This document shows positions 1 to 40,839 of a stretch of DNA of 40,839 nucleotides, one piece after another. Origin of the DNA: Lentisphaerota bacterium (GTDB taxonomy: Bacteria > Verrucomicrobiota > Lentisphaeria > Victivallales > Victivallaceae); NCBI GenBank assembly GCA_015061775.1, contig SUVY01000020.1, forward strand, positions 1 to 40,839, read 5' to 3'. Within the stretch, counting starts at the first letter, position 1. Every line of letters begins with the position of its first letter. Position numbers and translations under genes: made by a program. Below the pieces are notes generated by a model that saw nothing but the letters and a program-made list of their open reading frames with translations, had not been told where the DNA came from and searched no databases.

Positions 1-2
1 AG

Positions 3-62
3 CCCGCCAAGCACGTTCAGAACCTGCGTGAGAAAGACCACTCGCCTTTAGAACGGAGTTGA
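3..62 (+). other. Possible 3' end of an upstream gene
   Basis: The frame beginning at base 3 is open from the window edge to a TGA at 60-62 and reads with a plausible charged composition (ends ...REKDHSPLERS). Only about 19 codons are visible and the stop lies inside the first GAACGGA repeat. It may be the tail of a real gene or chance. No family can be named. Confidence 0.25.
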
Positions 63-270
63 ACGGAATTGAACGGAGGGAACGGATAGCCGGGGCGGAG
101 AAGTATGTCGCACGCAGTTGTTTGCGGCGATGTTTGGCGTTTGGGGATGTCGCACGCAGTTGTTTGCAGAGTAATGCACGGCTAAGTTGTGGCGCAGACA
201 ATGGCGGGCGGAATACTTTTCCACATACAATATCTCCGTTCACTCCGTTCAACTCCGTTCTTATCCGTTC
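51..270. repeat. Inverted GAACGGA arrays flanking short direct repeats
   Basis: Bases 51-88 are four period-10 units of the type GAACGGAGTT. Bases 231-270 hold four units of the same motif in inverted orientation (CTCCGTTCAA type). Between them a 21-bp sequence, ATGTCGCACGCAGTTGTTTG plus C, occurs perfectly at 105-125 and 147-167 (42-bp period), with a degenerate third unit near 185-210. No convincing gene lies here: small ORFs on both strands merely translate the repeats. Function unknown; the layout (inverted ends, repetitive core) resembles a small non-autonomous element. Confidence 0.6.
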
Positions 271-305
271 GGGAGCCTTCCGTTTTCTCAAGCGTTTTGC
301 GTATG

Positions 306-334
306 TTGACAAAATATAACCAATGTGCTATATT
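306..334 (+). promoter_or_regulatory. Orphan sigma70-type promoter
   Basis: TTGACA at 306-311, a 17-bp spacer and TATATT at 329-334 give a near-ideal sigma70 promoter. No gene starts nearby: the next start codon with a ribosome binding site is at 677, beyond the dispersed repeat at 400-553. It could make a long leader for that gene or a transcript of the repeat. Confidence 0.5.
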
Positions 335-399
335 TAAATGTATAACAAAATAGCGTTTATCATCGATCCAAAAACGCTTTCACAAAAATTGGGATAATA

Positions 400-553
400 C
401 AAATAAAAAAGTTTTTTCGCTTTTCTTGAAAGGGTGAGATCCGCCGTCGCCAAGGCTATGGCGGGACAGGGGGAAAAGAATAACGAAGCCGACGTTCGGC
501 TTCTTTTCTCGTGAAAAGAAGTTTCGCCCTTCCCCCGCATCATCTCCCCATAT
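400..553 (-). repeat. Dispersed ~150-bp repeat, copy A
   Basis: This segment matches, in reverse complement, 8823-8957 and 40684-40837 almost base for base. It contains hairpins (CTTCTTTTC/GAAAAGAAG and GCCGA/TCGGC in the B/C orientation) and an A/T-rich end (AAATAAAAAAG). Short ORFs through it are shadows, since the same frames recur in each copy without a ribosome binding site. It lies between genes and looks like a MITE-like or structured intergenic repeat. Confidence 0.85.
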
Positions 554-598
554 CTGGAACAATGCTAAAAAAAATAGCGATTTTTTTCAAAATACCCC

Positions 599-676: not shown

Positions 677-1612
677 ATGAAAAACAAAAATCTCACCATC
701 AGCAAACGGCTGACCAATTGCAAAGAAGAAGGCATTTCACCTGTCTGGAGACAGGTGAAGCTGTACAGCTTCACGCTCATCGAACTCCTGGTGGTGATCG
801 CGATCATCGCTATACTCGCGGCTATCCTTATGCCCGCTCTTTCAAGTGCGCGTGAACGCGGAAAAAGCGCGACCTGCATCAACAACCTCAAGCAAGTCGG
901 ACTTGCCAATATGAACTATATGCAAGATTACAACGGCTGGTACTTCCCCAACGAAATCAATGATATTGAAATGAAGCCCGGATACGATGCCTATGTAGGC
1001 AACTTCTGCCCGAGAGCAAAACGCAACGACGGCGCTGCATGGATATTCTATATAGGTATAACCACCGGAAGACCTAAAACCTGGAAATACCTCGGCACCA
1101 ATGTATCAAATCCGAGAAACAACGTTCTGATTTGCCCCTCCGACAACAACCCTGCCGGAAATGACCAAAAGGAAATGAAATCCCCCAATATACGCTACTT
1201 CTCTTACGGCGCAAACAACTTTGTTCACGGCAATCCCAAGGGAACCAACGTAAAAAACTGGAATGGTATCTGGATGAATGCCGCCAACTGGGGACATCAC
1301 AAACTCAAGAAAAAGCCCTCTCAGGTCGCTATGGTCACCGACCGCGATGACACCCGCGATGATGAAGGAGACCGCCTGCCGACTATCTCGTACAAGGGAA
1401 GCACCACCCTCGACACCGCGACTGCAGAACATTGGCTTGATCCTGAAGCCGGTCCCGGATGCCTTGCAGCGAGACACAACGGCAACGTTTCATCCCTGTT
1501 TGCCGACGGTCACTGCAAGCTGATCATGACTCCGATCCCCAACAGCCACACTCAAAACAGCTACTGCAACTGGCTCAATCCGACGACGCTCGACCGTACC
1601 GATCTCAACTGA
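677..1612 (+). CDS. Pseudopilin-like protein 1 (prepilin N-terminus, H-X9-DG)
   Basis: A 311-residue protein with a type IV prepilin-like N-terminus: [19 protein letters not shown] at residues 31-49, where a prepilin peptidase would cut before Phe32. The residue before the cut is Ser, not the usual Gly. A globular domain follows, with the H-X9-DG motif of prepilin-like proteins (His267, Asp277-Gly278). The start has an AGGG ribosome binding site. The 31-residue leader is unusually long because it holds an in-frame palindromic insert (692-785) also found in the next gene. Planctomycete and lentisphaere genomes carry many such proteins, presumably anchored as pseudopilins; their job is not established. 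The gene has its own promoter and terminator. Confidence 0.85.
692..785 (+). repeat. In-frame palindromic leader insert, copy 1
   Basis: Two 16-bp segments 78 bp apart (692-707 degenerate, 770-785 TTCACGCTCATCGAAC) bracket a sequence with two overlapping palindromes. These are a 24-bp hairpin with GG loop at 736-759 and the perfect palindrome GTGAAGCTGTACAGCTTCAC at 755-774. They share the GTGAA segment, so they compete. The 3' arm of the second encodes the Ser-Phe-Thr of the prepilin motif. Confidence 0.8.
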
Positions 1613-2765: not shown

Positions 2766-4502
2766 ATGAAAAAACTCCTTCTTTTAGCTGTCAGCGGAAT
2801 ACTCTCATTCGTTCAGGCTCAAATCATTCACGTTTCCGCCGACGCTGCTGACGGCGGAGACGGTTCTAAAGAAAAACCTTTTGCAAAAATACAGCAGGCT
2901 CTTGACAAAGCAGCTCCGGGAGACACAGTTGAACTCGCTCCCGGAGTATATTATGAGAGGGTAAAATTTCCCCGCTCAGGAGAGTACAAAAAGCCCATCC
3001 GTCTCAACGGTCCGCGATCCGCCATCATTGACGGGTCGATACGCTTCAAGCAGGAGTGGAAAAAAATTCCGGAATACGGACCCAACGCATGGCACACAAA
3101 AGTTCCCGCTGACCTCTTCCCTTCGCAAGTGGAGCATAAGGGCAGCGGACTTGTTGTTTCTCCTCAGGGATCGATCATCCAGCTCTATGAAAAGCGGGTC
3201 GGAAATCTCAAAATAGCAACAAAAGATCCGCACAACACGTGGTATGCTCCGGAGCTTATGACCAAAGGCATCGGCAAAACCAAAATGTCCTTCATTCAGG
3301 CTCTTGCCATGTACCGCCATAAGCAGCAGGATGTTATCGTTTCATACGGAGACGGCAGGGATGTATCAAAAGAAAACATCGTCTTTTCCCCTCCCCTGCC
3401 CTCGATCGTCATCGACGGCGTTGACCGCTGTGTCGTTTCCGGAATCACCATACGCCACTCCTATCTCGGCGTGCGCGTAAAAAACTCGCTCGGCACGGTC
3501 ATCGAAGACTGCCGCATTATGCGCAGCGACCGCGGAATAGAACTCAGTCAAAACAGCGACCGCTGCACAGTTCGCTTCTGTGATATATCCATGGACCCCA
3601 TCTTCGGCTGCGATCCGTGGAAAAAAGGAAGCTGGGACGCCTGGAAAGGACACAAAATCGGCGGTTTCTGGGACAGGATCGCCATAAATATAGTAAACTC
3701 CAAAGGCGGACACCGCATCCACGACAACTATCTGCACAACCATTGGGGCGGTGTTCAGGACGCAGGAGACAACCCCGATCTTGACGTCCACCACAACTTC
3801 ATCGCCGACATCGAAGACGATGCTCTCGAACCCAACGGAACAAACCGCAACTGCCGCTGGCATCACAACTATATCATAAACAGCCGCTGCGCCTTCAGGA
3901 TAAAATGCATTCAAAAGGGTCCCATGTACGCTTATGCAAATGCGTTTTTCAACTGCAAGGAGGATTTCCGCAATTACAAGCAGCACCAATATCCAGATGC
4001 AATCGCATATATCTATCACAACACCAGCAATGCCACGGTGGGCATAAAAAATAATGCGGTAAAAATGCCTCCCGGAATGAAGAATTTTCACTATTTGAAC
4101 AACATCTTCGTCTGTGACGCCATCTACGGCGGCTCAAACGCACACAACTGGCTCGATGCAGGAAACGTCTATTTTTGCCGCACGCAAAGTGCCCTCTGGC
4201 AAAAAAGCATAGATTTGGCAAAAAAACACGGTTTCAAGTCAACCAGCAAGTTTTTCTCTCACGCAAATCACGGAGTGAATGATTTCAACAAAGGTGATTT
4301 TTCACTCAAAGAGAACTCTCCAGCCCGCAATGCCGGAATTGATTTGAGCAAGTTCGCTCTCCCCGGCATCGAAGAGTTTTCCTCACGCGATTCAGGCGCA
4401 GTTCCCTACGGAAAAGCGATGTTTAAAACTTACAGAAACAAATCAACTTTAACATACCCCCCTGCCGGTTCATGGCCGCAGGAAAAAGAAGGTGAAAAAT
4501 GA
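2766..4502 (+). CDS. Secreted right-handed beta-helix protein 1
   Basis: A 578-residue protein with a signal peptide (cleavage likely after VQA, about residue 18). An N-terminal segment, DGGDGS..PFAKIQ..LDKA.PGDTVELAPGVY.ERV, caps many parallel beta-helix enzymes. Short coils rich in Asn, His, Gly and Cys follow (HDNYLHNHWGGVQD, HHNFIADIEDDALEPNG, SRCAFRIK) in the central region. Such folds are used by polysaccharide lyases and hydrolases. No catalytic set can be assigned by eye, so the substrate is unknown; carbohydrate binding or cleavage outside the cytoplasm is inferred. It is 3 bp after pseudopilin 2 and overlaps the next paralogue by 4 bp (ATGA). Confidence 0.85.
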   Translation: MKKLLLLAVSGILSFVQAQIIHVSADAADGGDGSKEKPFAKIQQALDKAAPGDTVELAPGVYYERVKFPRSGEYKKPIRLNGPRSAIIDGSIRFKQEWKKIPEYGPNAWHTKVPADLFPSQVEHKGSGLVVSPQGSIIQLYEKRVGNLKIATKDPHNTWYAPELMTKGIGKTKMSFIQALAMYRHKQQDVIVSYGDGRDVSKENIVFSPPLPSIVIDGVDRCVVSGITIRHSYLGVRVKNSLGTVIEDCRIMRSDRGIELSQNSDRCTVRFCDISMDPIFGCDPWKKGSWDAWKGHKIGGFWDRIAINIVNSKGGHRIHDNYLHNHWGGVQDAGDNPDLDVHHNFIADIEDDALEPNGTNRNCRWHHNYIINSRCAFRIKCIQKGPMYAYANAFFNCKEDFRNYKQHQYPDAIAYIYHNTSNATVGIKNNAVKMPPGMKNFHYLNNIFVCDAIYGGSNAHNWLDAGNVYFCRTQSALWQKSIDLAKKHGFKSTSKFFSHANHGVNDFNKGDFSLKENSPARNAGIDLSKFALPGIEEFSSRDSGAVPYGKAMFKTYRNKSTLTYPPAGSWPQEKEGEK

Positions 4503-6208
4503 AAAAGAATTTACTCTTTGTATCAACTCTTATGTCTCTTGCGCTATCTGCGCAGACCATTTATGTCGCTTCCGACGCCAAAGATGGCGGAGACGGCTCA
4601 AAGGCAAACCCCTTTGCCAAAATCCAGCAGGGACTCGACAAAGCTATGCCGGGAGATACAGTTGAACTCGCTCCCGGAGTCTATTATGAAAGAGTGAAGT
4701 TCCCGCGCTCTGGAGAATACAAAAAGCCGATCCGCCTCAACGGTCCGCGCACTGCCATCATTGACGGAGCGGTAAAATTCGAACAGAAGTGGAAAAAAAT
4801 TCCCGCTTACGGTCCCAATGCGTGGCATACAAAAGTTCCGGCAATTTTCTTCCCTTCGACCGTCAGAAATCCCGGCTGCGGTCTGGTCATCGCAAAAGAT
4901 GGTCTCATCATTCAGCTCTTTGAGAAACGCGTCAAAGACACAAAAAGCAAGAAAAATGACAAACGCACCACATGGTACGCTCCCGCGCTCATGACCAAAG
5001 GTATCGGCAAATCCGGGATGAAATTCATCAAGGCACTTGCCATGTACCGCAAAAAACAGAGCGATGTCGTCGTCGCATTTGGAGACGGCCGAGATGTCTC
5101 AAAAGAAAATATGGAGTTTGCGCCTCCTATTCCATCAATAACCATCAACGGAGTTGACCGCTGTGTTGTCTCCGGAATCACCATCCGCCACTCCTACAGA
5201 GCTGTCGATATCCAAAACTCCGTCGGCTCTGTCGTCGAAGGATGCCGCGTGTTGAGAAGTGACCGCGGAGTTGAACTCGGCTCAGGCAGCGACCGGTGCA
5301 CGGTTCGCTTCTGCGAGATATCCATGGACTCGATTTTCCGCTGCACTCCCGGCATTCCGGGATCCTGGGACGCCTGGACCGGTCACAAACGCGGCGGCTA
5401 CTGGGACAGGATCGCCATAAATATCAGCAACTCCAAGGGCGGTCATCAGGTGCACGATAACTATCTGCACAACCATTGGGGCGGAGTTCAGGACACAGGA
5501 GATAATCCCAACCTCAATGTCCACCACAACCGCATAGACGAAATCGAAGATGACGGTCTCGAACCCAACGGAAGCGAAAAAAACTGCCAATGGCACCACA
5601 ATTACGTCACCCGCAGCCGTTGCGGTTTCCGCATCAAAGGTATCCAGGCGGGGCCGATGTACGCTTACGGTAACGTCTTTTTCAACAGCAAAGAGGACTT
5701 CCGCAACTTCAGAGAAACCAAAGCCGTTGCTTTCATCTATCACAACACCAGCAATGCAGCCAATGCGGTCAATAACAACAAAGTCAAAACAGCTCCGGGC
5801 GTTCCCAACTACCACTATCTCAACAACATCTTCGTTTGCGACAAGCTCTACGGAGGAACCAATGCCCTCAACTGGACTGATTCAGGAAACACCTACTTCT
5901 GCCGCACCAAGTCCGACCTCTGGCAGCAGACCATCGACAAAGCAAAATCTTTCGGTTTCAAGAGCACAAGCAAATTCTTCGACCATGCAAACCACGGTGT
6001 AAAGGATTTCGCCAAAGGAGATTTTTCTATTGCGGAAAATTCGCCAGCCCGCAACGCGGGAGCCGATTTGAGCAAATACAACCTTCCGGGAATAGAAGAG
6101 TTCTCCTCACGCGACGCCGGAGCAGTTCCCTATGGAAAGCCGATGTTTGAAACCTTCAGAAGCAAATCTGCTGTGAAATGTCCTCCAGCAGGCTCTTTCC
6201 CCAAATAA
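4499..6208 (+). CDS. Secreted right-handed beta-helix protein 2
   Basis: A 569-residue paralogue of the previous gene, colinear along its length. Signal peptide to about residue 18 (LSA|QTI), the same N-terminal cap, and the same conserved blocks (VDRCVVSGITIRHSY, HNHWGGVQDTGDNPNL, IEDDGLEPNG, SRCGFRIKGIQAGPMYAYGNVFF, and a C-terminal LPGIEEFSSRDAGAVPYGKPMF). The ATG overlaps the preceding stop, so translation is probably coupled. All three copies keep the Cys in VDRC and SRC and the acidic EDD cluster, which suggests a common structural or catalytic site. Function beyond a secreted beta-helix is not known. Confidence 0.85.
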   Translation: MKKNLLFVSTLMSLALSAQTIYVASDAKDGGDGSKANPFAKIQQGLDKAMPGDTVELAPGVYYERVKFPRSGEYKKPIRLNGPRTAIIDGAVKFEQKWKKIPAYGPNAWHTKVPAIFFPSTVRNPGCGLVIAKDGLIIQLFEKRVKDTKSKKNDKRTTWYAPALMTKGIGKSGMKFIKALAMYRKKQSDVVVAFGDGRDVSKENMEFAPPIPSITINGVDRCVVSGITIRHSYRAVDIQNSVGSVVEGCRVLRSDRGVELGSGSDRCTVRFCEISMDSIFRCTPGIPGSWDAWTGHKRGGYWDRIAINISNSKGGHQVHDNYLHNHWGGVQDTGDNPNLNVHHNRIDEIEDDGLEPNGSEKNCQWHHNYVTRSRCGFRIKGIQAGPMYAYGNVFFNSKEDFRNFRETKAVAFIYHNTSNAANAVNNNKVKTAPGVPNYHYLNNIFVCDKLYGGTNALNWTDSGNTYFCRTKSDLWQQTIDKAKSFGFKSTSKFFDHANHGVKDFAKGDFSIAENSPARNAGADLSKYNLPGIEEFSSRDAGAVPYGKPMFETFRSKSAVKCPPAGSFPK

Positions 6209-6222
6209 AACAAGAGTAGCAA

Positions 6223-8022
6223 ATGAAAAAAAATCTGGTCTTTGTATCTGCTCTCCTCGCTTTTGCGTTATCAGCGCAGACCATTTATGTCGCTTCAGAC
6301 GCCAAAGATGGCGGAGACGGTTCAAAGGCAAAACCATTCGCCAAAATCCAGCAGGGACTCGACAAAGCTATGCCGGGAGATACCGTTGAACTTGCTCCCG
6401 GAGTATATTTTGAAAGAGTAAAGTTTCCGCGCTCAGGCGAATACAAAAAACCTATCCGCCTCAACGGTCCGCGCAGTGCGGTAATCGACGCAAGCGAACA
6501 ATTTGCTCCCAAGTGGGAAAAATACCCGGAGTACGGTAAATTCGCATGGAGAACCTCAGTACCGGCAACTTTATTTCCCAAAACAGAGAATAATCAGGGC
6601 TGCGGACTTGTCATCGCCAAAGACGGTCTCATCATCCAGCTCTTTGAGCGCCGCGTAACTGCCGACAAAAACGGAAAAGTCAAAATAGAACGAGATACCG
6701 TCTGGGAAAAAAAGCACCTTATGCAATACGGTATCGGCAAAACCAAGTGGAAGCTCATAAAAGCTCTCGCCATGTACCGGGCAAAAGAACGCGATCTTAT
6801 CGTCTCTTTCGGCGATGGAAGGGATATTTCAAAGGAACAGATCATCCTGTCTCCGCCGATACCCGCAATCATGATCGACGGAGTTGACCGCTGTACTGTT
6901 TCAGGAATAACTATACGTCACGCTCAAAAAGGAGTGCTGATAAGAAACTCCTGCGGAAGTGTTGTTGAAAACTGCCGTATATTGCGCTCCGATTTCGGCG
7001 TTGAAATGCGCGGCAAAGCTGAACGATGCACTGTACGTTTCTGCGATATATCGCTCGACCCGATATTCAGATGTGATCCGCGACTCTTGGGATCATGGGA
7101 TGCGTGGAGAGGTCACAAATTTGGAGGATACTGGGACCGCATCGGCATAAATATGCTCTACACAACCGGCGGCCACCATATCCACGACAACTATATCCAC
7201 AACCACTGGGGCGGAATACAGGATATCGGCAATCCCGGACAAAATCTCGCCCTGAACGTCCACAATAACCGCATAGATGAAATAGAAGACGATGGTCTTG
7301 AACCTGACGGCGGAGAAGAGTATTCCACCTGGCACCATAACTTCGTCACCCGCAGCCGCTGCGGATTCCGCATAAAATGCATTCGCAAGGGGCCGCTCTT
7401 TGCCTATGCAAATGTTTTCCGGGACAACATTGAAGACTTCCGTAACTTCGGCACCATCAAAATCGCCCAGGCTGACGTTTTTGTCTATCACAATACCAGT
7501 ATAACCAAAGCTGCGATCAACAACAACGCTATTCCGAAAGACATCGGAACCCCGAACTTTCATTACTATAACAATATTTTCGTCTGCGACTGTATTTTTG
7601 CCGGAACGTATGCCGATCCCGACTGGCACGATGCCGGAAACGTCTATATCAGGCGCAATAACACAAAAAGTTGGCAGGAAGTCATGGATAAGGTTTTCAA
7701 ATCCGGTTTCAAATCAACGAGCAAATTCCTCGCAACAGGTAAAAGCGGTTTTACCGACTTGAAAAATGGAGATTTTTCCATTTCTCAGACCTCAGACGCA
7801 ATCAAAGCGGGAATCGATATGAGAAGCTTCAATCTTCCCGGAATGGAAGAATTTTCCTCACCTTCCCCCGATGCCGGAGCTGTCCCGTCAGGCAAACCGA
7901 TGTTCAAGGTGTTCAGAAATCCCTCAGAAGTGAAACATCTTCCGGCAGGACATTGGCCGCTCCCGGGAACAAAACTCTCTCTTCCGGAACACTTCGCAAA
8001 GCACCTGCTCAAAAACCGCTGA
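6223..8022 (+). CDS. Secreted right-handed beta-helix protein 3
   Basis: A 599-residue third paralogue. Its signal peptide and first ~60 residues are nearly identical to protein 2, so the duplication is recent at this end, and the middle is more diverged (DIGNPGQNLALNVHNNRIDEIEDDGLEPDGGEEYSTW is in the equivalent place, cited here only by position ~330-360). It has an extra ~18 residues at the C-terminus. The start follows AAGAGTAGCAA, a weak ribosome binding site, 14 bp after the previous stop. No hairpin terminator is evident downstream before the rubrerythrin promoter. A role in recognising or cleaving polysaccharide is inferred. Confidence 0.85.
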   Translation: MKKNLVFVSALLAFALSAQTIYVASDAKDGGDGSKAKPFAKIQQGLDKAMPGDTVELAPGVYFERVKFPRSGEYKKPIRLNGPRSAVIDASEQFAPKWEKYPEYGKFAWRTSVPATLFPKTENNQGCGLVIAKDGLIIQLFERRVTADKNGKVKIERDTVWEKKHLMQYGIGKTKWKLIKALAMYRAKERDLIVSFGDGRDISKEQIILSPPIPAIMIDGVDRCTVSGITIRHAQKGVLIRNSCGSVVENCRILRSDFGVEMRGKAERCTVRFCDISLDPIFRCDPRLLGSWDAWRGHKFGGYWDRIGINMLYTTGGHHIHDNYIHNHWGGIQDIGNPGQNLALNVHNNRIDEIEDDGLEPDGGEEYSTWHHNFVTRSRCGFRIKCIRKGPLFAYANVFRDNIEDFRNFGTIKIAQADVFVYHNTSITKAAINNNAIPKDIGTPNFHYYNNIFVCDCIFAGTYADPDWHDAGNVYIRRNNTKSWQEVMDKVFKSGFKSTSKFLATGKSGFTDLKNGDFSISQTSDAIKAGIDMRSFNLPGMEEFSSPSPDAGAVPSGKPMFKVFRNPSEVKHLPAGHWPLPGTKLSLPEHFAKHLLKNR

Positions 8023-8790: not shown

Positions 8791-8822
8791 GCTCATTTTC
8801 TGATAAGGAGAGATCGTTCTTG

Positions 8823-8957
8823 GAGAAGGGGAAAACTTCTTTTCACGAGAAAAGAAGCCGAACGTCGGCTTCGTTATTCTTTTCCCCCTGTCCCGCCATA
8901 GCCTTGGCGACGGCGGATCTCACCCTTTCAAGAAAAGCGGGGAAACTTTTTTATTTA
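8823..8957 (+). repeat. Dispersed ~150-bp repeat, copy B
   Basis: Nearly identical to 40684-40837 (same orientation) and to 400-553 (inverted), slightly shorter at its left end where the GAGATGATGCGGGG part is missing. It sits between the converging rubrerythrin and pseudopilin 3 genes, immediately after the rubrerythrin terminator. Confidence 0.85.
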
Positions 8958-8994
8958 CCTTTACCTACCCATGTCGGGAACAGAGCCTACAGAT

Positions 8995-10000: not shown

Positions 10001-10068
10001 AAAAAAACTCCCGCAAGCGTGATAACTTGCAGGAGCTTTTGAAAAGTTTCCGGTATCGGAATTACTTT
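10001..10068 (-). pseudogene. Remnant copy of rpsS 3' end and its terminator
   Basis: Bases 10025-10068 are identical over 44 bp to 13168-13211, which is the terminator arm, spacer and last codons (Lys-stop) of rpsS. The matching left arm of the terminator (10008-10017) carries one change that mispairs. Beyond 10068 the sequence turns into an unrelated GC-rich stretch (10070-10140) in which I see no gene. This is a scar of a segmental duplication. Confidence 0.75.
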
Positions 10069-10218: not shown

Positions 10219-12099
10219 TCAGGCGATGATATCGAAGGAGCTTTTCAGGTCGGTTTCGATGCGGGCTTTGAGATCTACCCAGTTGCCCGCGTAGCCGTTG
10301 CCCCAGTAACCCATTCCGCCCCAGCCTGTATTGTACTCGCGGAGCAGGAGGTCGGCGCAGCCGTCACCGTTGTAGTCTCCGGCGGCTTCGATTTCAAAGC
10401 CTTCTCCGAGAGTTCCTCTCCAGCGTTTGGTCTGGCTGTTTCCGTCATCCCATATCCAGACGTTGTTGGTGTTGCGGTCGAGCACCATGATATCGTCTAT
10501 TCCGTCTCCTTCAAAGTCTCCTACGGCGGCGACTTCCCAGCCGCTTTCGAGCTTGCCGACACTCTGGGTCTTCCAGTTCCAGGTGGCAAAGGTGGTGTCC
10601 TGATTTGTCCAGAGGTAAACTTGGTGGTTATAGTTGTTGACCATCACAAGTTTATCCATTCCGTCATCGAATGAGCCCGCGCCCTCGATAGTCCATGTGG
10701 CGAAGTCTCCCTCGTTGACGTGGAAGATATCCTTGTAGGTGGTTCCTCCGAGGACGACTCCGATGCTTCCGTTGGTATCGTAGATGAGGATGTCGTCGTA
10801 TTCGTCTCCATCGAGGTTGGCGAGGCATTGGGTGTTGAATGAGCCGTCAACTTTACAGAGGTTGACGTAACCATAACTGCCTTTGCGCAGGTCTGTCCAT
10901 GCGGCGAAACGGTTTCCGACTCCGTTATAGAGCAATACTCCGTCGTAATCGACTTCAGAACCTTTGAAGTGTCCGACTCCGGCAACACGCCAGAGGTCAG
11001 CTTCTGCGCCGCTCCACTCCCAGACGCCCTTCCAAGCCGGACGGACGCTTCCGTCGGTCGCCATATAGCCCACTTTGCCCTGCTCGCTGTCCCAAGCCAA
11101 TATCTGTGACACTCCGTTGGTAAGCAGGTTGGTAACGGGAGCTTCGGCAGCGTTCTTATTCTGAACGCTCAAATGCAAGTTTCCGTTGGAATTGGTCAAT
11201 TTGTATTTTCTATCATTGTACTCAAACACATCTCCATCGACGGTAATCGTGCCGATATTTTCGTCTCCGGCATAAAGGGTCAGTATTGATGAGATGTTCT
11301 GCGCTTTCTGGGCGAGCTTGTAGATTCCGTACTCCTGGTCGGCTTCAACCGTGATGGTGTAGGTCGGAGCTCCGTTTATCAGAGAAAGGTCATTAACTAT
11401 ATAACCGTCTGCCACCGTTCTATCAGTAACTGTAAAGTCGATAATCGCGCCCCCGTAAGCTGAGACGATCGCGCCGGAATATATATTCAAACCGCCTTTG
11501 GCTGTTCCTCCGCTTGAAATGCGCATGAGACCACCAGAGTTTACTGTGGTACTGTTTGCCTCTCCGCGGCTGGTGACATACAGATTTCCACCACTATTTA
11601 CCGTGGTACTGTTTGCCTCTCCGCGGCTGGTGACATACAGATTTCCGCCACCTTTTACCGTGGCGCTGTTCGCGACTCCGCCATTGGATATGTACAACTT
11701 TCCATATTTTTCTACAACGGTGTTTGTTGCCTCTCCACCACTTAATATATATATACACCCACTATTTTTTACGGTGGTGCTGTTCGCGATTCCGCCGGAG
11801 GAGATGTACATATCGCCCCTGGAATTTACGGTGGTACTGCTTGCGATTCCGCCGGAGGAGATGTTCATCCTGCCACTGGAATTTACGGTGGTGCTGTTCG
11901 CGATTCCGCCGGAGTAGATGTTCATCCCGCCACTGGAATTTACAGTGGTGCTGTTCGCGATTCCGCCGGAAGAGATGAACATATAGCCACTGGAATTTAC
12001 GGTGGTGCTGTTCGCGACGCCGCCGGAGTAGATGGTCATATAATCGTTAAAAAGAGTGATACCGTTGCTGATTACTCCGCTTGAAATAAGATATGCCAT
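10219..12099 (-). CDS. AIDA-repeat / FG-GAP-type surface protein
   Basis: A 626-residue protein in two parts. Residues ~21-200 are nine complete 19-residue repeats of the form ISSGGIANSTTVNSSG (AIDA-type beta-helix repeats). Residues ~330-620 hold several FG-GAP/VCBS-like units with calcium-binding-type DxDGDxxDD loops (NLDGDEYDDILI, DFEGDGIDDIMV, DYNGDGCADLLL), suggesting a beta-propeller. The start at 12099 was chosen for TGGAGG with good spacing; an upstream in-frame ATG has none. No classical signal peptide is visible (MAYLISSGVISNG), which is odd for a protein built of surface modules. It lies between two pseudopilin genes and has its own promoter and terminator. Adhesion or matrix binding is inferred. 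Confidence 0.8.
   Translation of the reverse strand: MAYLISSGVISNGITLFNDYMTIYSGGVANSTTVNSSGYMFISSGGIANSTTVNSSGGMNIYSGGIANSTTVNSSGRMNISSGGIASSTTVNSRGDMYISSGGIANSTTVKNSGCIYILSGGEATNTVVEKYGKLYISNGGVANSATVKGGGNLYVTSRGEANSTTVNSGGNLYVTSRGEANSTTVNSGGLMRISSGGTAKGGLNIYSGAIVSAYGGAIIDFTVTDRTVADGYIVNDLSLINGAPTYTITVEADQEYGIYKLAQKAQNISSILTLYAGDENIGTITVDGDVFEYNDRKYKLTNSNGNLHLSVQNKNAAEAPVTNLLTNGVSQILAWDSEQGKVGYMATDGSVRPAWKGVWEWSGAEADLWRVAGVGHFKGSEVDYDGVLLYNGVGNRFAAWTDLRKGSYGYVNLCKVDGSFNTQCLANLDGDEYDDILIYDTNGSIGVVLGGTTYKDIFHVNEGDFATWTIEGAGSFDDGMDKLVMVNNYNHQVYLWTNQDTTFATWNWKTQSVGKLESGWEVAAVGDFEGDGIDDIMVLDRNTNNVWIWDDGNSQTKRWRGTLGEGFEIEAAGDYNGDGCADLLLREYNTGWGGMGYWGNGYAGNWVDLKARIETDLKSSFDIIA
11527..12039 (-). repeat. 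Nine 57-bp coding repeats (AIDA type)
   Basis: Nine in-frame 57-bp units encode the 19-residue AIDA-like repeats, and a tenth is degenerate below 11526. The two last units (11527-11583 and 11584-11640) share a 44-bp identical core and encode identical peptides, which indicates recent duplication or slippage. Confidence 0.85.
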
Positions 12100-12135
12100 A
12101 AAAATACCTCCAGATGTTAAAATTACCTGCATTAC

Positions 12136-12165
12136 ATAATATTGCATACTTTTCCTATTTTGCAA
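12136..12165 (-). promoter_or_regulatory. Promoter of the AIDA-repeat gene
   Basis: On the minus strand GCTTGCAA (-35 TTGCAA, 12160-12165), an 18-bp spacer and TATTAT (12136-12141), 37 bp before the start codon. Confidence 0.5.
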
Positions 12166-12193
12166 GCGGGTATTGCTCACTTATTGCTATAGA

Positions 12194-13145: not shown

Positions 13146-13182
13146 TAAAAAAACTCCTGCAAGTTTGACTTGCAGGAGCTTT
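13146..13182 (-). terminator. Terminator at the end of the ribosomal protein run
   Basis: Perfect 10-bp stem CTCCTGCAAG / CTTGCAGGAG with a 5-base loop followed by seven T residues on the minus strand, 22 bp after the rpsS stop. Confidence 0.9.
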
Positions 13183-13204
13183 TGAAAAGTTTCCGGTATC
13201 GGAA

Positions 13205-13471
13205 TTACTTTCCGGAGACCACACCGTGATCCTTGAAGGTACGGGTCGGAGCGAACTCGCCCAGCTTGTGGCCAACCATGTTTTCGGTCACGAACACAGG
13301 CACGAACGCTTTGCCGTTGTGGACGTTGAACGTGTGTCCAACGAAATCCGGAATGATCATGGAACGACGGCTCCAGGTTTTGATGGCAACCTTGTTCGCA
13401 GGATTCATTTTTTCGACTTTGTCGAGAAGATGCTGATCGACAAAAGGTCCTTTTTTGATGGATCTCGGCAT
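13205..13471 (-). CDS. rpsS: Ribosomal protein S19
   Basis: The 88-residue protein has the standard S19 sequence ([47 protein letters not shown]). It forms part of the head of the 30S subunit beside S13. Its ATG overlaps the rplB stop by one base (TAATG). In most bacteria rplV, rpsC, rplP and the spc genes follow; here a terminator follows and then pseudopilin genes, so the S10 cluster is cut at this point. Confidence 0.97.
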
Positions 13472-39627: not shown

Positions 39628-40650
39628 TTACTTGGCGATATAAAATCCCGCTTTTTTCGCGGCGGTCACCTGCTCGCGCAAGCCGTTCACCGCCTCTCCG
39701 AGCTCGCCGATGGCGGCGGTTGCGGGATAGATATACACTACTTCGCTCGCAAGTTTTTCACGCAGACGCTCAAGATTTTCCTCAGCTCCCTCAAGATCCA
39801 TCTTGTTGGCTATGATCATGGTGGCGCGTTTGGAGAGCCCGGGCATATAGAGCTCAAGCTCGTTTTTGAGCGCATCGAGATCCTCGAGCGGGTCTCTTCC
39901 GTCAACTCCGCCCATATCAAGAACGTAACACAACACCGATGTACGCTCGATGTGACGCAGAAATGCGTGTCCGAGACCTACGTTTTCGTGTGCGCCCTCG
40001 ATGAGACCGGGAATATCCGCAACAAGAATACGCTCGTAATCCGGATACTCTACGACTCCCACCACCGGATTGAGAGTGGTGAAGGGATAGCTTGCAACTT
40101 TGGGCTTGGCGGCTGAAATCGCTCCGAGAAGCGTTGATTTTCCGGCATTGGGAAATCCGACCAGACCCACGTCTGCGATAGTTTTGAGTTCAAGCTGGCA
40201 GCTTTTTTCCTCGCCCGGTTTTCCCTCTTCGCAATAGCGGGGAACCCGGTTGACGCTGCTGACGAAACGGGCATTTCCGCGCCCTCCCCTGCCGCCTTTG
40301 GCAACCAGTACGCGCATACCGGGAGTGTCGAGGTCGGCGATGAACTCTCCGGTCTCACCATCAGTCACCACTGTACCCACCGGAACTTTGACGATGACCG
40401 GCTCGGCATTTCTTCCGTGGCAGCCTGCGCCTTTGCCTCCGGGACCGTTGGCTCCGCGGAAATGGCTCTGATATACCAATGCGACCAGACTCTGCTCGCT
40501 GGATGTACTCTCAAGGTAGATGCTTCCGCCCGCACCGCCGTCTCCGCCGTCGGGACCGCCTTTGGGAACAAACTTCTCGCGGCGGAAACTGCAGCATCCG
40601 TTGCCGCCGTCGCCACCCTTGACGGTGATCTTTACTCTGTCAACAAACAT
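39628..40650 (-). CDS. obg: Obg-family GTPase
   Basis: 340 residues. The glycine-rich N-terminal Obg fold ([30 protein letters not shown] at ~10-39) is followed by the G domain with [26 protein letters not shown] and NKMD. It ends right after the G domain, so the C-terminal OCT domain found in some relatives is absent; this short form occurs in many bacteria. It acts in 50S assembly and stress control. AGAGG precedes the ATG. The upstream region is the dispersed repeat, and no promoter is visible within the window. Confidence 0.95.
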
Positions 40651-40683
40651 TCTGTTACCTCTTACTCAAATGCGCTGTTCATG

Positions 40684-40837
40684 ATATGGGGAGATGATGC
40701 GGGGAAAGCGGGAAAACTTCTTTTCACGAGAAAAGAAGCCGAACGTCGGCTTCGTTATTCTTGTCCCCTTGTCCCGCCATAGCCTTGGCGACGGCGGATC
40801 TCTCCCTTTCAAGAAAAGCGGAAAACTTTTTTATTTG
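40684..40837 (+). repeat. Dispersed ~150-bp repeat, copy C
   Basis: Nearly identical to 8823-8957 and, inverted, to 400-553. It starts with ATATGGGGAGATGATGCGGG and runs to within two bases of the window end. It begins 34 bp upstream of the obg start codon. Confidence 0.85.
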
Positions 40838-40839
40838 GT

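What the first reader, a model, noticed from the sequence alone, without database searches (positions are those of the whole stretch)
400..553. Three near-identical copies of a ~150-bp structured intergenic repeat
Copies at 400-553 (-), 8823-8957 (+) and 40684-40837 (+) are almost identical in a 40-kb window, implying many in the genome. Two internal hairpins (CTTCTTTTC-ACGA-GAAAAGAAG and GCCGA-ACG-TCGGC) and conserved ends suggest a MITE-like element or a repeated RNA. Copies A and C are both placed upstream of a gene in the same relative orientation.
Basis: seen in the sequence. Interest (0 to 1): 0.6.

Follow-up and report, generated by a model that had tools for sequence, protein, structure and literature searches.

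The report
Lentisphaeria MITE family, IS110 landing site
The repeat is a small transposable element of about 160-200 bases that cannot move by itself; it is scattered dozens of times through this gut bacterium's genome, serves as the fixed landing site for a second mobile element, and in one of the three window copies (probably two) lies between a repeated promoter and a gene.

Summary
The three copies are real and belong to a large family. The window is one contig of a 2.70-Mb Lentisphaeria draft genome. There I read 40 distinct complete elements, in two lengths (157-172 and 196-199 bp; two odd longer ones). They have imperfect terminal inverted repeats (GGCTYTGTTCCCGAYA...). Thirty of 40 have perfect 8-bp target duplications (null 0.5%), AT-rich (13% GC). 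One orthologous empty site exists in a congener. It is not a repeated RNA gene: Rfam finds nothing credible, and orientation to genes is not fixed. Window copies belong to the long class, in which one arm of an ancestral ~24-bp hairpin is replaced by another module. Copies A and C look only ~150 bp long because their right ends are lost: A runs into a second MITE ("R2") with a consensus sigma-70 promoter aimed through the repeat at the next gene; C reaches the contig end there. An IS110-type element is inserted at one fixed point of the repeat (TTTCAAG/AAAAGCG; 13/13 left and 9/9 right junctions read). Congeners share the terminal repeats around unrelated interiors. No autonomous transposase was found; ISL3, IS6 and REP/RAYT were tested and not supported.

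The parts
401..566 (-). Copy A, long class, left end near 566; right terminal repeat missing, R2 abuts at ~401
   Evidence: 94% identical to copy C
554..566 (-). Left terminal inverted repeat of copy A (AGCATTGTTCCAG in element orientation)
   Evidence: consensus RGCTTTGTTCCCG from 40 elements
500..521 (.). Hairpin 1 (CTTCTTTTC-TCGT-GAAAAGAAG on +)
   Evidence: stem pairs covary across the family
485..503 (.). Hairpin 2, GAAGCCGA-CGT-TCGGCTTC, part of the module that replaces the right arm of the ancestral hairpin in the long class
   Evidence: and comparison of long and short copies
418..431 (-). Fixed IS110 insertion point TTTCAAG/AAAAGCG (unoccupied here)
   Evidence: junction sequences
288..400 (+). 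Part of second mobile repeat R2 abutting copy A; its promoter reads through copy A to gene 677-1612
306..334 (+). TTGACA-17 bp-TATATT promoter of R2 (11/12 consensus)
677..1612 (+). Prepilin-like DUF1559 / N_methyl gene downstream of R2 and copy A
   Evidence: Pfam PF07596, PF07963
8791..8987 (+). Copy B: decayed left end (~8791-8814), intact right end; no target duplication left
8926..8939 (+). IS110 insertion point in copy B (unoccupied)
8970..8987 (+). Right terminal inverted repeat of copy B (CATGTCGGGAACAGAGCC)
40673..40839 (+). Copy C: decayed left terminal repeat, long class; cut by the contig end at the position where R2 is joined in its 100% identical sibling at C65 (L002)
40807..40820 (+). 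IS110 insertion point in copy C (unoccupied)
39628..40650 (-). obgE (GTP1/OBG), starts 23 bp from copy C

Best explanation
The repeat is a non-autonomous DNA transposon (MITE), here called R1. It is 157-199 bp, with imperfect ~22-bp terminal inverted repeats (GGCTYTGTTCCCGAYA[T/A]GGG..) and AT-rich 8-bp target duplications. Shown: ends, duplications, two size classes, one empty site, insertion into other repeats, spread in the genus. Inferred: it was copied or moved in trans by a DDE-type transposase that recognises these ends; no such gene is in this draft. The ancestral interior is a long hairpin whose stem is kept by paired changes, followed by TTTCAAGAAAAGCG. In the long class (all three window copies) the right arm of that hairpin is replaced by a separate repeat module. 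Two further mobile elements exploit R1. An IS110-family element inserts at one fixed dinucleotide of TTTCAAG/AAAAGCG. A second MITE, R2 (~277 bp, own terminal repeats, consensus promoter facing outward), is found inserted in R1's T-rich tail. Where R1 and R2 lie upstream of genes, as in window copy A and probably C, the likely effect is R2-driven transcription through R1 as a structured 5' leader. That effect is inferred, not shown.
For: Own-genome matches. Complete elements with flanks: 40 distinct, 30 perfect and 35 at <=1 mismatch 8-bp duplications; shuffled pairs 0.5% perfect; duplications 13% GC. Orthologous empty site in a congener (JAFVZB010000046.1), 75% identity running across the insertion point. 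R1 inserted into another R1 end with duplication AAAGTAAA. Same terminal repeats with unrelated interiors in congeners. The terminal-repeat pattern hits only Lentisphaeria among ~85,000 genomes. IS110-type junctions at the same point, 13 left and 9 right; the partial ORF resembles DEDD_Tnp_IS110. R2: ends, promoter and 8-bp duplication TATTTTGG. Hairpin stem, 53 distinct sequences: nearly all of 24 positions paired, with both-sided changes at several.
Against: No autonomous partner was found, so trans-mobilisation is not demonstrated. The three window copies are not the best examples: A and C lack right ends and B lacks a target duplication. Some dozens of hairpin copies lack recognisable terminal repeats, so part of the family may have spread otherwise or be decayed. 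Only one orthologous empty site was found.
Confidence: 0.92

Rival explanations
1. A REP/BIME-like extragenic palindrome spread by a RAYT (Y1/HUH) transposase.
For: Strong palindrome, many copies, mosaic structure, use as an IS110 target as with REPs (PMC1525189); TIR-less hairpin copies exist.
Against: The elements have terminal inverted repeats and 8-bp duplications, which RAYT mobilisation does not produce (own knowledge). The only Y1_Tnp gene found has no copy of the repeat in the 2.2 kb around it.
Confidence: 0.04
2. A repeated structured RNA: riboswitch-like leader, small RNA or terminator family kept for function.
For: Compensatory changes in the stem; copies A and C sit in gene leaders; terminator-like stems with T-tracts.
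Against: Complete copies sit in all gene orientations (crude gene calling), carry target duplications, give no credible Rfam hit, and congeners have unrelated interiors between the same ends. Paired stem changes can also arise by template switching or conversion between arms.
Confidence: 0.04
3. Ends of a larger composite transposon or known insertion sequence, assembled in pieces.
For: Some copies run into R2 or the IS110 element, and many contigs break there.
Against: 40 complete short units with both ends; no IS-sized pair of these ends with a coding interior (the one 926-bp unit is R1 with a nested non-coding repeat).
Confidence: 0.05

Closest known systems
Correia elements (CREE/NEMIS) of Neisseria, a bacterial MITE
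   Same: 100-200 bp, non-coding, terminal inverted repeats, >100 copies, intergenic, stable stem-loops, association with promoters next to genes (PMC10969869, PMC2229807)
   Different: Unrelated terminal repeats; 8-bp AT-rich duplications instead of TA; the promoter comes from a second MITE nested in the repeat; occupied by an IS110-type element
REP sequences as IS110 targets (IS621, ISPpu9, ISPpu10, ISPa11)
   Same: IS110-type element always at the same point of a repeated palindrome (PMC1525189)
   Different: Here the target is a MITE with target duplications, not a RAYT-associated REP; the guide RNA was not identified
ISL3- and IS6-family derived MITEs
   Same: 8-bp duplications and terminal repeats beginning GGCTCT / GGCTCTGTT (own knowledge of these families)
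   Different: No ISL3 or IS6 transposase in the genome; ISL3 loci of congeners lack these ends

Membership tests
Bacterial MITE | Short (<500 bp), no transposase gene | tested here: met
   157-199 bp in 38 of 40
Bacterial MITE | Terminal inverted repeats | tested here: met
   Left RGCTTTGTTCCCGATATGGGGA, right (reverse complement) GGCTCTGTTCCCGACAAAGGTA
Bacterial MITE | Target-site duplication | tested here: met
   30/40 perfect, null 0.5%
Bacterial MITE | Many dispersed, mostly intergenic copies | tested here: met
   (9 of 35 appear inside an ORF by crude ORF calling only)
Bacterial MITE | Mobilised in trans by a related autonomous element | tested here: inconclusive
   No element with these ends and a transposase found; multi-copy IS are easily lost from a draft MAG
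ISL3-family derivative | ISL3 transposase present or sharing the ends | tested here: not met
   PF01610 absent in G000; congener ISL3 loci lack the ends
IS6-family derivative | IS6/IS240 transposase present | tested here: not met
   PF13610 absent
REP/RAYT system | RAYT gene flanked by the repeats | tested here: not met
   single Y1_Tnp gene without the repeat nearby
Correia element | Correia terminal repeats with TA duplication | tested here: not met
   different ends, 8-bp duplications
IS110 family (the element inserted in the repeat) | DEDD transposase | tested here: inconclusive
   55-aa N-terminus matches PF01548 at E 0.013, below cut-off; rest of gene missing from the MAG
IS110 family (the element inserted in the repeat) | Bridge RNA matching target and donor | tested here: inconclusive
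   no convincing guide match in the left or right non-coding end

The most novel reading that the evidence does not exclude
The terminal repeats belong to a transposase family not represented among the candidates tested, apparently confined to Lentisphaeria. It would mobilise many short elements that share only their ends, while interiors (hairpins, promoters, exchangeable modules) are swapped freely, so that promoter-bearing and IS110-receptive cassettes are shuffled through these genomes.
Probability: 0.15. Interest if true: 0.55.

Novelty: new member of a known kind. Interest (0 to 1): 0.36.

Why it matters
It explains a large share of the repeats in a poorly studied gut phylum, and some of the contig breaks in its draft genomes. 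It gives a clean natural set of IS110-type insertions at one short target for testing guide-RNA rules, and shows two MITEs nesting so that a repeated promoter is placed before unrelated genes.

Tried and rejected
ISL3 and IS6 transposases as partner: none, or without these ends. RAYT: one gene, no flanking repeats. IS-sized pairs of the ends in all fetched loci: only a 926-bp R1 holding a nested non-coding repeat. Rfam at permissive E-value: only sub-threshold microRNA-type matches to the long hairpin and one ordinary tRNA nearby. Bridge-RNA guide match: not convincing. Copies on plasmids or in viral contigs: none.

Full report
What was checked. The search scored only 40 of 225 first-look candidates, so this is a lower bound.

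Anatomy. It begins RGCTTTGTTCCCGATATGGGGAGATGATG and ends CCTACCTTTGTCGGGAACAGAGCC, i.e. imperfect terminal inverted repeats. A search for the right end alone gave 70 sites against 2 for the reversed control pattern. From fetched loci I catalogued 40 distinct complete elements, in length classes 157-172 and 196-199 bp plus one each at 330 and 926 bp (one further entry at 191 bp pairs two overlapping left ends). Thirty have a perfect 8-bp direct duplication and 35 have at most one mismatch. Pairing flanks of different elements gives 0.5% perfect. The duplications are 13% G+C.

Mobility. One insertion (L075, 161 bp) has its pre-insertion site in a congener, on a record of sheep-colon MAG RGIG5525, with alignment running across the junction. 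R1 is also inserted into the end of another R1 with duplication AAAGTAAA. Complete copies show no fixed orientation to genes, with the caveat that gene calling was crude.

Interior. The short class holds a hairpin of about 24 bp with loop NCGN, then CCC...TTTCAAGAAAAGCG. In 53 distinct hairpins nearly all positions pair, with changes on both sides at several positions, e.g. GC/CG/AT at position 15 and GC/TA at position 25. This can reflect selection on structure, but also copying between arms, so I do not take it as proof of an RNA function. The long class, which includes the three window copies, has the right arm of the hairpin replaced by ~62 nt containing GTCCCGCCATAGCCTTGGCGACGGCGGATCT. 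That module also occurs on its own in other genera of the family. Dozens of hairpins carry no recognisable terminal repeats; some, such as L168 and L171, show decayed ones.

Relatives. In a search of 78 genomes of the family, RGIG5525 (G052) has full-length copies at 90-94% and other congeners have weaker matches. In congener G032 the same terminal repeat brackets an unrelated ~400-bp interior in high copy, and other congeners show further interiors. An exact scan for the degenerate terminal repeat over ~85,000 species genomes hit 43 stretches, all Lentisphaeria.

Partner. No IS-sized element with these ends was seen. ISL3 and IS6, suggested by the 8-bp duplication and GGCTCT ends, were tested and not supported; other families with 8-bp duplications were not tested. 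The draft also lacks the body of the IS110-type element, although 13 left and 9 right junctions of it were read, so absence of a multi-copy transposase from this draft is weak evidence.

IS110-type occupant. The sequence ATATTATGAGAGACACAAGAGGTCTCTCAT... is joined to TTCAAG in all 13 left junctions read, and ...GTCTCTCATAGGAG to AAAAGCG in all 9 right junctions read. The uninterrupted repeat reads TTTCAAGAAAAGCG. This holds in short, long and TIR-less backgrounds. The start of its gene (MNNVSHNQEKIYFGLDVSQKTIEIFALKG...) resembles DEDD_Tnp_IS110, E 0.013, below the curated cut-off. Fixed insertion of IS110 elements in repeated palindromes is known (PMC1525189), and IS110 elements are directed by bridge RNAs (PMC11208160). 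I could not identify guides here.

R2 and the window copies. In copy A the element stops at ~401 because a second repeat begins there. R2 is ~277 bp in complete copies and its ends, GGTATTGTCCCAATTTTTGTGA and GTTAATGTCTCAAATGTTGTGA, match at 17 of 22 positions. It shows an 8-bp duplication in L066 (TATTTTGG) and is inserted in R1's T-rich tail in L076 and L087. It carries TTGACA-17-TATATT (window 306-334, 11/12 consensus), aimed out of the element. The promoter occurs before unrelated genes: prepilin-like (window), PIG-L-like, chromate-transporter-like and others (the last two named by eye). In copy A, L002, L029 and L072 R1 lies between that promoter and the gene. Copy C is 100% identical to L002 over 154 bp, is cut by the contig end at the same joint, and sits 23 bp from obgE, so the same arrangement is likely but not seen.

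Verdict. By the published description of prokaryotic MITEs (<500 bp, terminal repeats, direct repeats, often with sigma-70 promoters; PMC10969869) this is a new member of a known kind. What is notable is the nesting of two MITEs and the fixed IS110-type target.

Noticed in passing
L058 (C66:304-336) and L059 (C46:9123-9155): Stand-alone palindrome AAGATATTATGAGAGACACAAGAGGTCTCTCATAATATCTT that shares its left half with the end of the IS110-type element.
   Followed up: no
window 1-290; L079 1590-2385: Related repeat (GAACGGAGTTGAACGGAGTGAACGGAG...) which in L079 lies inside a ~800-bp non-coding element with ends GGGCTGTTGCAAAACC nested in an R1 copy: a third mobile repeat.
   Followed up: partly
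L205-L224 (congener G032): About 110 terminal-repeat sites with a ~400-bp interior unrelated in sequence to that of the window repeat; many contig ends fall in it.
   Followed up: partly
L240 100-150 (congener G037): Two terminal repeats almost back to back, about 30-50 bp in all, possibly a minimal element.
   Followed up: no
window 693-952 and 1849-2108: Two prepilin-like genes share a 90% identical 260-nt stretch around the N-terminal FTLIELL region.
   Followed up: no
window 2766-8022: Three tandem paralogues of a right-handed beta-helix protein.
   Followed up: no
window 10219-12180: AIDA-stalk / FG-GAP protein with 57-nt tandem repeats.
   Followed up: no
window 10025-10068 and 13168-13211: Perfect 44-bp direct repeat, the second copy upstream (by coordinate) of the rplB-like gene region.
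   Followed up: no
L288 (C36:11697-12026): The genome's only Y1_Tnp-like gene found, next to a replication- or partition-like ORF.
   Followed up: partly
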